DNA of 41,143 nucleotides from Chloroflexota bacterium. GTDB lineage: Bacteria; Chloroflexota; Anaerolineae; JAAEKA01. Below are positions 36,637 through 41,143 of this stretch, piece after piece. Where the stretch lies: the NCBI GenBank assembly GCA_034717495.1, contig JAYELL010000047.1:1-41143 (forward strand). The letters run 5' to 3'. The notes beneath the pieces were generated by a model. That model was not told the DNA's origin. It did not search any database and worked only from the letters and a program-made list of their open reading frames with translations. Position numbers and translations under genes: made by a program. Numbering within the stretch: the stretch's first letter is position 1; each line of letters starts with the position of its first letter.

Positions 36637-38973
36637 ATGGACTCGATTCCGCAGCGACGCCACCGAGATCTGGCGACACTGACCTGGATGTTTAGCCAGG
36701 TACCTTCCCGACCGTGGCCCTCTTCCCGGCAGCATGTGGAATTCGACATGGCCAGCGTGGCAGGGTGGTTGCCTGCCACCGTGCCAGGCAACGTTCGCAG
36801 TGATCTGCTTACTGCGGGCTTGATTCCCGATCCCCTTCTCAGCGACGGATTGGAGTCCAGCCGGTGGACGGAGGGCGTTGACTGGTGGTACCGGACCCAG
36901 TTGCCTCTCGACATGCAGCCGGGAGATCGGGCCTTTCTCGAGTTCGATGGCATTGACTATCTCAGCGCTATCTTCGTTGACGGCCAGCAGATTGGCCTCC
37001 ATCAGGGCATGTTCAGCCGCCAGATCGTCGAGCTTCCTTCCAACCTGTGTGAACGCTCCAGTGTTCAACTGGCCGTGCGTATCTGGGGATCCGACAGCTT
37101 GCCCGAGTACAGCACAAATTTGTGGCAGTCCGCCTGGGCCCGGATAGCAGCGAAGGCCCAGGATAGCTTTCCCCCCTTCGACGACCGGTTGGCGTCCCTC
37201 AAGGCGCCCATGCATTCTGGCTGGGACTTCGCTCCCCGCCTGCGAACCATGGGGATATGGGATCTCTGCCGCCTGGTAATCTGTCGCGGGGTCTACCTGG
37301 CCGACCTGCAGGTCGAGGCTGAGCCCGTCGCGCCGATCACCGATCCGGGGCCAGCCCGGCTTCAGTTAAGCCTGACGCTCAACAGCGACAGTGCGCGTAT
37401 TGTGCAGGCGGAGATTGTCATCGCTCCCTCGGACGACACATCCAACATCCTCGAACGGTTCACTTTGGACCTCCAGGTTCCAGCCGGATCGAGCAGGCAT
37501 CAGCGGGAGGTTCTTCTGCCGTCGGCCCGCCTCTGGCAGCCATGGGACCGGGGCCAGCCCTGTTTATACCAGGTATCGATCGTTCTGCGGGAAGCTGCGG
37601 TAGAGGGTTCTGAGAAGTCACAGGTACTGGACAGGGTTGGCGTGCGGGTTGGGGTTCGAAGGATTCAGCGGGAGTTGACTGGCGATGGCGCACCCTGGAA
37701 CGTGGTTGTCAATGGACACACTCTTTTCCTGCGGGGAGCCAACTGGGTACCGGTGGATTCCCTCCAGGGACGGTCAGGCCTGCAGAACTATGGTCCCCTT
37801 TTGCAGCTTGCCAGGGAAGCTGGGCTCAATTTCCTGAGAGTGTGGGGAGGTGGCGGCCGCGAGAAAAAACTCTTTTATGACCTGTGCGATGAGATGGGCT
37901 TTCTTGTCTGGCAGGAATTCCCGATAGCCTGCGTATTCCTGGATCACCTGCCGCGGGATCGGGCTTATCTGGAGGTGTTGCGTCAGGAAACTGCCGGGAT
38001 TGTCCGTGCCTTGCGCAATCATCCGTCGCTTTTCCTCTGGTGTGGGGGCAACGAGTTTAGTCCCCTGCGTAACCGTCCGGCGATCCGAACCATGGCTGAG
38101 GTTGTGGCGACAGAGGATCCGGAAAGGCCCTTCATTTCGGCTTCGCCCAGCATGGGGGACTCCCACAACTGGAACGTCTGGCACGGACTGGCTCCCCTGG
38201 CTGCCTATCGCGGGGAACATGCAGCGTTTGTCAGTGAGTTTGGCCTGCAGGCTGTTCCCCACATCGACTCCTTGCGGCGTTTCCTGCCCGCGATGCAATT
38301 GTGGCCACCGGGCACGGGGTGGGAACGCCACAAGGCCGACCTGGACAAGCTGACCCGCTATGCCCAATGGTTTCGCGACTCCGATAGCCGTGACGCGCCG
38401 GCAGACGAGGCACTGGAGTCTTTTGTCCGGGCCAGCCAACGCTGCCAGGCTGCCGGACTGCAGGTAATGGTGGAGCATGTTCGGCGACGCAAGGGACAAA
38501 CCGGCGGCCTGGCGCTATGGCAGTGGAATGAGCCCTGGCCCGCCATCAGCTGGAGTGTCATCGATTACTTCGGGCAAGCGAAACGAGCTTATGATGTGCT
38601 GGCTCGTATCATGCAGCCGGTTCTGGTCAGCCTGTTATTCCCGCTGAAGCCAGTCAAAAGGGGTGATCAGTTGACGAGCGAGATATGGCTGGTGAATGAT
38701 CGCCTGACGGAATTGGCAGGATGCCGGCTCGAGGTTTTCCTCGACGAAAAACTGGTGCATGAACAGGCCTGTTCGGTCGGCGCCAACAGGGCGTCCCCTG
38801 TTGGAAAAATGAGCATCGCGATGCCCTCGACAGCGGGGGAACTGCGGGTTGCATTGTGGCAGGGGAACCGGCGGTTGGCAGAAAACGTCTACGACCTGCG
38901 CCACGTGGATGGTGGCACTGCCCCCGCGACGGCGACAATCCTGCGCCAGGGGGTTGATTGGCTATTGCGTTAA
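36637..38973 (+). CDS. Glycoside hydrolase family 2 protein, beta-mannosidase-like
   Basis: A 778-residue retaining glycosidase. The N-terminal sugar-binding domain begins around residue 45 (WLPATVPGNVRSDLL), followed by the immunoglobulin-like domain and the TIM barrel from about residue 360 (LFLRGANWVPVDS). The acid/base is E473 in WCGGNEFSPL and the nucleophile E534 in FVSEFGLQAVP. The sequence style (PGNVRSDLLTAGLIPDP, WWYRTQLP, LRVWGGGG) is that of beta-mannosidases. There is no signal peptide, so it acts in the cytoplasm on imported oligosaccharides. The ribosome site before the ATG at 36637 is weak. It is 32 bases upstream of the secreted glycosidase-like gene and may be co-transcribed with it. 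Confidence 0.9.
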   Translation: MDSIPQRRHRDLATLTWMFSQVPSRPWPSSRQHVEFDMASVAGWLPATVPGNVRSDLLTAGLIPDPLLSDGLESSRWTEGVDWWYRTQLPLDMQPGDRAFLEFDGIDYLSAIFVDGQQIGLHQGMFSRQIVELPSNLCERSSVQLAVRIWGSDSLPEYSTNLWQSAWARIAAKAQDSFPPFDDRLASLKAPMHSGWDFAPRLRTMGIWDLCRLVICRGVYLADLQVEAEPVAPITDPGPARLQLSLTLNSDSARIVQAEIVIAPSDDTSNILERFTLDLQVPAGSSRHQREVLLPSARLWQPWDRGQPCLYQVSIVLREAAVEGSEKSQVLDRVGVRVGVRRIQRELTGDGAPWNVVVNGHTLFLRGANWVPVDSLQGRSGLQNYGPLLQLAREAGLNFLRVWGGGGREKKLFYDLCDEMGFLVWQEFPIACVFLDHLPRDRAYLEVLRQETAGIVRALRNHPSLFLWCGGNEFSPLRNRPAIRTMAEVVATEDPERPFISASPSMGDSHNWNVWHGLAPLAAYRGEHAAFVSEFGLQAVPHIDSLRRFLPAMQLWPPGTGWERHKADLDKLTRYAQWFRDSDSRDAPADEALESFVRASQRCQAAGLQVMVEHVRRRKGQTGGLALWQWNEPWPAISWSVIDYFGQAKRAYDVLARIMQPVLVSLLFPLKPVKRGDQLTSEIWLVNDRLTELAGCRLEVFLDEKLVHEQACSVGANRASPVGKMSIAMPSTAGELRVALWQGNRRLAENVYDLRHVDGGTAPATATILRQGVDWLLR

Positions 38974-39005: not shown

Positions 39006-40397
39006 ATGATGAATTCCCAACGACGTACAATCGCTCTTGTTGCCTTCGTGTTGGTGGCGATCCTTGTATTGGCGGCTGTCTGGCTTTTTATCGGTAGACA
39101 ACCTTCCGCACAAAATGCTCAGGCGCCGGTTGCCCCCTCGGAGCCCTGGACGCCATCGTTGCCAGCCGAATTGGAAACGCCGGCGCAGGCTTCACCGACT
39201 GCGCCTATGGGACCTTCACCCCTGGCTTCTCCGAGCCCCACCTTGGGCTTACAGACTCCCCTTTCCCTTGAACCCTCTGAGCAGCAATCAGAAGCTGATA
39301 AGGCTCTCTATTTGCCCAGTGTGGGGCAGGGGGATTCGCTGGGAGAGGTGCCTTCTCCGGCAGATGAACCGACTCGAGAAGAGCCAGAAGATGAGACGGA
39401 ACCAACCGTTCGGGCTGCCGGGGTCGAGCCTGTTGAAACGGTCAAACCGATGATCCTGGCAGACCTTCCGCCCCTGAGTCTGGCCGACTGGCCCCGGCCC
39501 GTCCGCGACAACGGCATTTGCATCCACAATATCACCGAAGCCTACTATCATGAGGAGAATCTGGACATGCAGGTCCGCCGGCTTCAGGAAATGGGCATGC
39601 GCTGGACCCTGATGCTCTATGCCGATGAAAACCAGATCATGAAGGCTGCTCCTCGTTTCCGCGATGCCGGCATCATGGTTGTCTGGCGCAAGATGCTGCG
39701 ACCTTATGAGCGCTACTACGACTGGGGGCGGGATATCGCCTTGCTGCGCGAGCTGGGTATGGAACCCTACATGCAGATCTACAATGAACCCAGCCTGTCA
39801 GCCGAATGGCCCGACAAGCGCATGGACCAGGAGCAGTTTCTAAAGAATCTTGTCAATGCGGTGGAGCAGGTCTACAACGCTGGCGGCTATGTGGGCCTGC
39901 AGTTTGTGAGCGATGAGTGGCTGATTGCGGCCATCGATGAGATCCAGCGTCGCCAGGGTAATGCGGTTTTTGATCGCATGTTCCTGGTTCCCCATCCCTA
40001 CGGGTTGAACCACCCTCCCGACTACATCGAGGATGCCAATTCGGTCCTGGGTTTCTTGGATCAGGCCGATGTCGTCCGGGAAAGGCTGGGCTTCGTGCCT
40101 CCTATGATTGCCGGGGAAGGGGGCTGGAAATACAACGCCAGCGACGACAATCGGTTCCCGCGCATCGACGCGCCGCTCCACCGGGATTACCACGTGGCAG
40201 CCTATGATTGGTTCCGCAGTGGTACCCTCTCCAACGGTGAGCCCCTGCCCGACTACCTGCTGGCCTTCTGCCCATGGCTCCTGTCGTCCAAACTGGAGGA
40301 CAGCGCCTGGTTCGACAGTTTTGCCGGCGATCACCAACTTACCATCGATGGCGTGAAAGGAATGTCCAATTTCGAGAGGCGGTTTAGTTGGGAATGA
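39006..40397 (+). CDS. Secreted glycosidase-like protein with Pro-rich stalk
   Basis: A 463-residue exported protein. One membrane segment (IALVAFVLVAILVLAAVWLFI, about 9-29) is followed by a Pro/Ser/Thr/Glu-rich stalk to about residue 150. Then comes a globular domain of about 300 residues that looks like a TIM-barrel glycosidase: DNGICIHNITEAYYHEE, QIYNEPSLSAEW (with an Asn-Glu pair typical of clan A acid/base sites) and MIAGEGGWKYNA (a possible nucleophile glutamate). I do not recognise the exact family; it may be GH39- or GH5-like. The start has GAGGAG about 20 bases upstream, so ATG 39006 or 39009 is equally possible. The octamer array begins on the base after its stop codon. Confidence 0.75.
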   Translation: MMNSQRRTIALVAFVLVAILVLAAVWLFIGRQPSAQNAQAPVAPSEPWTPSLPAELETPAQASPTAPMGPSPLASPSPTLGLQTPLSLEPSEQQSEADKALYLPSVGQGDSLGEVPSPADEPTREEPEDETEPTVRAAGVEPVETVKPMILADLPPLSLADWPRPVRDNGICIHNITEAYYHEENLDMQVRRLQEMGMRWTLMLYADENQIMKAAPRFRDAGIMVVWRKMLRPYERYYDWGRDIALLRELGMEPYMQIYNEPSLSAEWPDKRMDQEQFLKNLVNAVEQVYNAGGYVGLQFVSDEWLIAAIDEIQRRQGNAVFDRMFLVPHPYGLNHPPDYIEDANSVLGFLDQADVVRERLGFVPPMIAGEGGWKYNASDDNRFPRIDAPLHRDYHVAAYDWFRSGTLSNGEPLPDYLLAFCPWLLSSKLEDSAWFDSFAGDHQLTIDGVKGMSNFERRFSWE

Positions 40398-40539
40398 GGG
40401 GACGCGGAGACGCGGGGATACGGGGACGCGGAGACACGGAGACACGGGGACGCGGGGACGCGGGGACGCTGGGATGCTGGGACACGGGGACGCGGGGACG
40501 CGGAGACACGGGGACGCGGAGACGCTGGGACGCGGGGAG
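40398..40539. repeat. G-rich octamer array, 17 units in perfect phase
   Basis: Seventeen units of 8 bases, without any gap, run from 40398 to 40533, with a partial unit to 40539. Eight units are GGGGACGC. The others vary only at unit positions 1 (G/T), 3 (G/A), 6 (C/T) and 7 (G/A); positions 2, 4, 5 and 8 never change. The array begins on the base after the TGA of the preceding gene. There are no spacers, so it is not CRISPR. It is a short tandemly repeated repetitive sequence; the strand is G-rich and could form G-quadruplexes. Confidence 0.9.
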
Positions 40540-40566
40540 TTGGAAATCTAGTGAAGGGGGTAGATC

Positions 40567-40947
40567 ATACCGAATATTCGCAGTTATCGTGAATTACGCG
40601 TGTACCGGGCGGCATTTGAAGCTGCAATGCAGGTGTTCGAGTTGACACGGAGTTTTCCTGCCGAAGAAAGATACGCATTGGTTGATCAAGTTCGGAGATC
40701 ATCGCGATCGGTTTGCATGAATATCGCAGAAGCATGGCGGAAACGCCGATACCCAAGGCACTTCGCCAGCAAGTTGAGCGATTCGGAGGCAGAAGCTGCC
40801 GAGACTCAGGTTTCTCTTGAATTCGCACTGCGATGTGGCTACATTGACCAGGAGATATTCGACACCATCGACGATAGTTACGACAAGATACTTGCTCAAC
40901 TCGTCACCATGGGCAAGAATCCCGAGAAATGGACCATTCGACGATAA
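40567..40947 (+). CDS. S23-type four-helix-bundle protein (23S rRNA intervening-sequence family)
   Basis: A protein of the S23/IVP four-helix-bundle family (PF05635-like), first found inside intervening sequences of 23S rRNA and related to Avd of diversity-generating retroelements. Signature pieces are FELTRSFPAEERYALVDQVRRSSRSVCMNIAEAWR and EAAETQVSLEFALRCGYI. Homology begins before the first usual start (GTG 40600). The upstream in-frame codons give PNIRSYRELRVYRAAFE, the standard family N-terminus, and an ATA at 40567 takes the place of the start. A GAAGGGGG Shine-Dalgarno sequence lies at 40553-40560, seven bases before it, and an in-frame stop is at 40561. Read from ATA the protein has 126 residues, the normal length. 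Function is unknown; RNA or nucleic-acid binding is thought likely for the family. Confidence 0.85.
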   Translation: MPNIRSYRELRVYRAAFEAAMQVFELTRSFPAEERYALVDQVRRSSRSVCMNIAEAWRKRRYPRHFASKLSDSEAEAAETQVSLEFALRCGYIDQEIFDTIDDSYDKILAQLVTMGKNPEKWTIRR

Positions 40948-41011
40948 CAATCTGGCCGGGCAAAGCCCCGCCCACTTCGCTTCACAGGGTCGAAAAGTTG
41001 CGTCCCCCACT

Positions 41012-41137
41012 CGCCGTGTCGCCCCTCCGCCCTCCCCACCCGCAGCGTCCCCCCTCGCCGCGTCGCCCCTCCGCCCTCCCCACCCGCCGCGTCCCCCTCC
41101 GCCCTCCCCACCCGCCGTGTCGCCCCCTCCGCCCTCC
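41012..41137. repeat. C-rich tandem repeat with octamer complements
   Basis: The core CTCCGCCCTCCCCACC occurs at 41025, 41069 and 41097, with a truncated copy at 41127, at spacings of 44, 28 and 30 bases. The copies are joined by CGCCG(C/T)GTC-like words. GCGTCCCC, the exact reverse complement of the octamer GGGGACGC, occurs at 41045 and 41089 in the array and at 41000 just before it. The array may continue past the window edge. On the minus strand it is very G-rich and could form G-quadruplexes. Confidence 0.8.
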
Positions 41138-41143
41138 GTAATC

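What the first reader, a model, noticed from the sequence alone, without database searches (positions are those of the whole stretch)
40398..41143. S23-family gene held between complementary short-repeat arrays
Upstream of the four-helix-bundle gene lies a G-rich octamer array (GGGGACGC units). Downstream lies a C-rich array that contains three exact reverse complements, GCGTCCCC, at 41000, 41045 and 41089. A transcript across both could fold with the gene in the loop. Intervening sequences in 23S rRNA have this same design: complementary flanks with an S23-family gene in the loop. Here it sits in an ordinary intergenic site. Sequence shows the arrays and the complements; the folding and the parallel are inference.
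Basis: partly seen in the sequence, partly recalled or inferred. Interest (0 to 1): 0.75.

Follow-up and report, generated by a model that had tools for sequence, protein, structure and literature searches.

The report
Mobile S23 gene between complementary repeat arrays
A small gene of the family known from inserts in ribosomal RNA sits, here and in many other bacteria, between two mirror-image short-repeat arrays as a movable hairpin cassette slipped between ordinary genes, which bears directly on the unsolved origin of those ribosomal inserts.

Summary
Window 40398-40538 is a GGGGACGC array that starts on the base after the upstream gene's stop codon. An S23-family gene (PF05635/TIGR02436) follows, then a complementary C-rich array (41000-41137) that runs into the contig end. 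Of 120 S23-family genes from at least nine phyla, 114 have a 7-9-bp tandem array in a flank (control windows 13/261). In 80/120 the two flanks are inverted complements (other genes 4.5%, cross-locus pairs 8%). The repeat unit differs from locus to locus, but the two arms match each other. The 5' arm is purine/G-rich in 77/79. At one site (OTC|arcC), orthologous S23 genes in six genomes have mostly unrelated units yet complementary arms. Two sites on Nostoc plasmids have empty counterparts with 11-55-bp gaps, so the cassette is an insertion. This genome holds truncated and internally deleted copies elsewhere, but no reverse transcriptase. Thirty-two other GGGGACGC arrays in it are solo (one possible partner), so pairing belongs to the S23 element. 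Best reading: an intergenic, mobile relative of 23S rRNA intervening sequences with array-built arms. The transposition chemistry, and whether RNA or DNA hairpin is the working form, are not shown.

The parts
39006..40397 (+). upstream (host) gene, 463 aa, no Pfam match; its stop codon TGA is 40395-40397
40398..40538 (+). 5' arm: degenerate GGGGACGC octamer array, G/purine-rich, begins on the base after the host stop codon
   Evidence: TRF; sequence; paired with 3' arm in MFE fold
40555..40560 (+). G-rich tract, possible Shine-Dalgarno of the S23 gene (inference)
   Evidence: sequence; in several relatives the last array unit lies just before the S23 start codon
40564..40947 (+). S23-family / four-helix-bundle gene (PF05635, TIGR02436). 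Conserved N-terminus lies upstream of the first GTG (40600), so initiation is at ATC/ATA/ATT or the start has decayed
   Evidence: XCC0516 structure 2gsc E=8.7e-11
41000..41137 (+). 3' arm: C-rich array with three exact GCGTCCCC, inverted complement of the 5' arm
41138..41143 (.). contig end; right boundary of the element and downstream gene not seen
   Evidence: window = G000:C47:1-41143

Best explanation
The region is one copy of a widespread mobile insertion cassette of about 450-710 bp: an S23-family gene enclosed by two inverted, mutually complementary arrays of degenerate 7-9-bp repeats. The purine/G-rich array lies 5' of the gene, the pyrimidine/C-rich array 3'. It is an intergenic relative of the S23-bearing intervening sequences (IVS) of 23S rRNA. 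It inserts between genes, often directly behind a stop codon and before the next ribosome-binding site, so host reading frames survive. Shown: association, inverted complementarity, insertion relative to empty sites, dispersed truncated copies, concerted divergence of the two arms at an orthologous site, purifying selection on the protein. Inferred: the two arms form a hairpin (cruciform or single-stranded DNA during movement, and a stem in the transcript) that the S23 protein recognises by shape rather than sequence, so the repeat unit can drift as long as both arms drift together. The 5' array often lies at the ribosome-binding position of the S23 gene, so pairing with the 3' array could limit its expression. 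The enzyme that cuts and joins is probably supplied by the host; a reverse transcriptase is not needed, since this genome shows none.
For: Inverted flank complementarity: 80/120 S23 genes at or above the threshold, against 17/120 direct orientation, 8% cross-locus pairs, 4.5% of 289 control genes and 1.1% of random positions (p about 2e-38). It holds in both S23 subfamilies (56/86 and 24/34) and in hits from at least nine phyla. Tandem arrays, nearly all of period 7-9, in 114/120 flanks versus 13/261 control windows. 5' arm G-skewed in 77/79. Empty sites: Nostoc MS1 plasmid has stop-array-S23-array where four relatives have 11, 11, 12 and 25 bp between the same two genes; at the L148 site relatives have 28 or 55 bp, and one has a 208-bp gene-less purine/pyrimidine segment. 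Copies in this genome: L012 element versus C15 (82%, S23 truncated after its N-terminal part) and C52 (93%, only the S23 3' end left between both arrays), with homology confined to the cassette. OTC|arcC site: six genomes, one supported S23 clade (with a seventh member next to OTC), own-locus arm complementarity 31-78 versus 12-30 with other loci outside sister pairs. dN/dS median 0.069 over 121 pairs. Pairing is specific to S23: 32 testable GGGGACGC arrays elsewhere in this genome give 1 downstream and 0 upstream partners. No RVT_1 match in this genome.
Against: One third of S23 genes lack strong arm complementarity, including three of the five in this genome (scores 20-25). No target-site duplication could be recognised at the empty sites. 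No cutting/joining enzyme is identified. Arm mismatches give no sign of selection on sense-RNA pairing. The window copy is cut by the contig end, has no ATG start, and its non-array part has no second copy in this genome. The genome is a draft of 120 contigs, and arrays often lie at contig ends. Loci are not phylogenetically independent.
Confidence: 0.7

Rival explanations
1. RNA-level element: the cassette works like the 23S IVS, as an mRNA hairpin cut out by RNase III. The arms are kept complementary by selection on the transcript, and spread is through RNA.
For: Same architecture and size class as the Coxiella IVS, which RNase III excises (PMC4990558); window RNA folds better than shuffles; many elements lie between co-directional, probably co-transcribed genes (24/31).
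Against: No excess of G:U over A:C mismatches on the gene strand (171 vs 244); antisense insertions are common (9 of 24 co-directional); no reverse transcriptase in this genome.
Confidence: 0.2
2. Passenger model: dispersed array/hairpin repeats are host-genome features with their own dynamics, and S23 genes merely land or survive inside ready-made hairpins.
For: Gene-less hairpins exist at some sites (L188, L321, L322, L365), and one empty site has a small solo purine array (L364).
Against: The same GGGGACGC unit elsewhere in this genome is nearly always solo. In a small sample, arrays were 1 in 364 kb of S23-free genomes versus 12 in 709 kb of S23-bearing ones. Closely related S23 genes share unit type (G000/G035, G004/G005), as expected if arms travel with the gene. 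The 5' arm is nearly always the G-rich one relative to S23.
Confidence: 0.2
3. Retroelement accessory (Avd-like): S23 works with a reverse transcriptase that writes the repeats.
For: Avd of diversity-generating retroelements is a homologue of PF05635 (PMC10053308); weak PF05635 hits next to RT genes in relatives look like Avd.
Against: No RVT_1 match in this genome, which nevertheless holds five S23 genes and a 93%-identical derivative copy.
Confidence: 0.05
4. Chance or composition: G-rich and C-rich tracts happen to flank one gene.
For: The window pair alone is only z=2.3 over dinucleotide shuffles.
Against: Family-wide controls; empty sites.
Confidence: 0.01

Closest known systems
S23-bearing intervening sequences (IVS) of 23S rRNA (Coxiella, Leptospira)
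   Same: S23-family ORF in the loop of complementary ends; similar size (428-444 nt vs 453-711 bp between outer arm ends here); the Coxiella IVS has tandem heptamers GACAGAT before the ORF, varying in number between strains (PMC4990558)
   Different: sits between protein-coding genes, not in rRNA; both arms are tandem arrays; gene-less and truncated derivatives are dispersed; excision by RNase III not known
STRR and G-rich heptamer repeats of cyanobacteria and Xanthomonas (PMC4692102)
   Same: degenerate G-rich 7-8-mer tandem arrays in intergenic regions; 70-75 convergent inverted pairs reported in Xanthomonas, whose XCC0516 is an S23 protein of solved structure
   Different: not linked to S23 genes in that paper; most arrays of the window's unit in this genome are solo
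REP/RAYT (TnpA-REP) systems
   Same: a protein gene flanked by short inverted repeats, with many gene-less copies in the genome (from general knowledge)
   Different: S23 is not an HUH transposase; ends differ from locus to locus instead of sharing one sequence
Avd of diversity-generating retroelements
   Same: homologous four-helix-bundle fold
   Different: needs an adjacent reverse transcriptase and template/variable repeats; no reverse transcriptase was found in this genome

Membership tests
23S rRNA IVS with S23 ORF | encodes an S23 / IVP protein | tested here: met
   PF05635 and TIGR02436
23S rRNA IVS with S23 ORF | ends complementary, ORF in the loop | tested here: met
   weaker for the window copy alone
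23S rRNA IVS with S23 ORF | lies within an rRNA gene | tested here: not met
   no Rfam match in the window; upstream neighbour is a protein gene
23S rRNA IVS with S23 ORF | excised from the transcript by RNase III | not testable with these tools
   needs RNA work
STRR-type short tandem repeat | degenerate 7-8-mer tandem arrays dispersed in intergenic DNA | tested here: met
Avd / diversity-generating retroelement | reverse transcriptase gene | tested here: not met
   0 RVT_1 matches in this genome
REP/RAYT | HUH (Y1) transposase gene | tested here: not met
   the only gene found in the cassette is PF05635
classical IS element | conserved terminal inverted repeats shared by family members | tested here: not met
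   arm units differ between orthologous elements
classical IS element | target-site duplication | tested here: inconclusive
   none recognised at the MS1 empty-site comparison

The most novel reading that the evidence does not exclude
S23 / four-helix-bundle proteins are the protein part of a large, unrecognised class of bacterial mobile element whose ends are defined by hairpin shape rather than sequence. The two arms are rewritten together by an unknown copying process, the short-tandem-repeat arrays of cyanobacteria and other phyla are partly its debris, and 23S rRNA IVSs are the branch that settled in rRNA.
Probability: 0.45. Interest if true: 0.9.

Novelty: new variant of a known kind. 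Interest (0 to 1): 0.8.

Why it matters
The origin and function of S23-bearing IVSs has stayed unclear since 1990 (so stated in PMC4990558), and S23 / 'four helix bundle protein' genes are widespread and lack an assigned role. The finding gives them a context (array-hairpin cassettes between ordinary genes), a likely nucleic-acid substrate, and natural experiments: filled, gene-less and empty sites, and orthologous sites where both arms have changed together. It may also explain part of the short tandem repeats long noted in cyanobacteria and other phyla.

Tried and rejected
A G:U test for RNA-level selection came out in the opposite direction. Reverse-transcriptase dependence was rejected for this genome. 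'Octamer array marks S23' was rejected: GGGGACGC arrays are common and solo. 'Elements split genes' was considered from flanking open frames; the cases read looked like consecutive genes, not one split gene. A Nostoc genus search for empty sites was not possible through the genome search; plasmid records gave the empty sites instead. Literature searches found no paper linking S23 genes with flanking arrays; only open-licence papers are held, so earlier notice elsewhere cannot be excluded. The palindromic contig L134 was set aside as a probable assembly artefact.

Full report
Observation. The 5' array begins at 40398, the base after the TGA (40395-40397) of the upstream 463-aa gene. Between the arrays lies an S23-family gene (PF05635; TIGR02436; nearest solved structure XCC0516, 2gsc). 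Its conserved N-terminus (..SYRELRVYRAAF..) starts before the first GTG, so it uses a rare start codon or has lost its start. The window ends at the contig end, so the right edge is missing. The RNA fold pairs the two arrays and beats 20 shuffles (z=-2.59), but composition contributes: the window pair alone is z=2.3 against shuffled arms.

Family-wide test. S23 genes were collected from this genome and relatives and from genome contigs across Cyanobacteriota, Bacteroidota, Chloroflexota, Verrucomicrobiota, Planctomycetota, Cloacimonadota and others. For 120 genes with enough flank, the 250 bp upstream was compared with the reverse complement of the 250 bp downstream. The score reached 30 in 80/120; the same flanks in direct orientation reached it in 17/120, and flanks of different loci in 8% of 708 pairs. 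Other genes in the same loci reached it in 4.5% of 289, random positions in 1.1%. Tandem arrays of period 5-11 occur in a flank of 114/120 S23 genes against 13/261 control windows; the best period is 8 (114 flanks) or 7 (55). The 5' arm is purine-rich (median 80%) and G-skewed in 77 of 79 cases. In several relatives its last unit lies just before the S23 start codon, where a ribosome-binding site is expected. Within this genome two of five S23 genes pass the threshold; the other three have weaker complementarity (scores 20-25), though short complementary repeats can be read in their flanks.

The arms are specific to S23 elements. The GGGGACGC unit is frequent in this genome (39 exact double units, one in 40 relatives), but of 32 testable arrays elsewhere in it only one has a possible complementary partner within 900 bp downstream and none upstream. 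Random sampling gave 1 array of 5, 7, 8, 10 or 11 bp period in 364 kb of S23-free genomes and 12 in 709 kb of S23-bearing genomes; this sample is small.

Insertion is shown by empty sites. On Nostoc sp. MS1 plasmid pNSMS101 the cassette (stop codon, GCAGGGGAGCAGGGAGCAGGGAGCAGGGGAG, S23, TCTCCCCTGCCCCCTGCACCCCTGC) lies between two genes that are 12, 11, 11 and 25 bp apart in Trichormus variabilis ATCC 29413, Nostoc NIES-3756, Nostoc SO-36 and Nostoc HK-01; HK-01 has a small solo purine array in the gap. At the site of L148 (Nostoc linckia) relatives on plasmids have 28 or 55 bp, or, in ATCC 53789, 208 bp with a purine tract and a pyrimidine tract but no gene. No target duplication was recognised.

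Dispersed copies. In this genome the C68 element (L012) has a partner at C15 with the 5' array, leader and N-terminal part of S23, then unrelated DNA, then the 3' array (82%), and one at C52 with both arrays and only the S23 3' end (93%); the flanking genes differ. These look like truncated and internally deleted derivatives. Gene-less purine/pyrimidine hairpins with similar units also occur (L188).

Arms change together. Between the ornithine-carbamoyltransferase-like gene and arcC, six genomes (G000, G004, G005, G019, G035, G053) carry S23 cassettes whose proteins form a supported clade (SH-aLRT 96); the one further member, G028, also lies beside OTC. Complementarity of each 5' arm with its own 3' arm is 31-78; with other loci it is 12-30 except within the sister pairs G000/G035 and G004/G005, which share unit type. 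Other genomes have unrelated gene-less hairpins or nothing at this site. So over time the unit drifts in both arms of one element. How is unknown; gene conversion between arms, structure-templated repair, or selection on the hairpin would all fit.

Protein. S23 is under strong purifying selection (median dN/dS 0.069, 121 pairs) with invariant Arg/Ser/Glu residues. The genes occur in many phyla and the tree needs 19 changes of phylum, though few columns limit resolution.

Mechanism. Elements lie mostly between co-directional genes (24/31), sense in 15 and antisense in 9, and in 9 of 15 sense cases the paired arm begins within 10 bp of the host stop codon. Arm mismatches are not enriched for G:U on the gene strand. 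This favours movement and maintenance at the DNA level, with the G-rich arm tied to the S23 strand, perhaps because it serves ribosome binding. The genome has no reverse transcriptase match. The recombinase is unknown; host supply is inference.

Known relatives. Published 23S IVSs have the same plan, and the Coxiella IVS even has heptamer repeats before its S23 ORF (PMC4990558). The window copy fails the defining location test (no rRNA), so it works like, and is homologous in its protein to, an IVS but is not a 23S IVS. G-rich heptamer arrays with inverted pairs are known in Xanthomonas and arrays in Nostoc (PMC4692102), without mention of S23. Avd of DGRs is a homologue (PMC10053308) but needs an RT.

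Verdict. The finding is real, general and apparently undescribed in the papers that could be searched. The cassette structure and insertion are well supported; the chemistry of movement and the RNA-versus-DNA question are open.

Noticed in passing
G000 C37:43461-43594 (L170), C17 (L163), C46 (L173, L174): Longer composite repeats mix GGGGACGC units with GCTTCCAGAAGACCGCAGACGACGGACGGCAGACC and GGACCACGAAGGCGCGAAGGAC motifs; nature unknown.
   Followed up: no
G000 contig ends (C4, C36, C59, C62, C70, C86, C96, C117, C47 end): Octamer arrays often lie at contig ends, so they probably break the assembly.
   Followed up: no
L134 (Plectonema cf. radiosum contig, 3825 bp): Flanks beyond the arms are inverted copies of each other, so the contig is a palindrome; probably an assembly fold-back through the hairpin.
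   Followed up: partly
G024, G005:C346, G034, G011:C122, G023:C78, G003:C276: Weak PF05635 hits lie next to RVT_1 genes: likely Avd proteins of diversity-generating retroelements.
   Followed up: no
L159 (S23 at 87 and 587), L107, L089, L099: Two or more S23 genes close together, in L159 500 bp apart with strongly similar direct flanks: tandem duplication of the element.
   Followed up: no
G000:C38:148579-148899 (L013): S23 gene with an internal TAG, probably decaying, between two genes, the downstream one hdrA-like; a related arrangement is seen in L091.
   Followed up: no
L321, L322, L305, L315, L325, L326, L329: The OTC|arcC gap in many Chloroflexota carries gene-less hairpins of different sequence, mostly purine arm first in the direction of the operon.
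   Followed up: partly
window 36637-38973: Glycoside hydrolase family 2-like protein, upstream of the gene that precedes the element.
   Followed up: no
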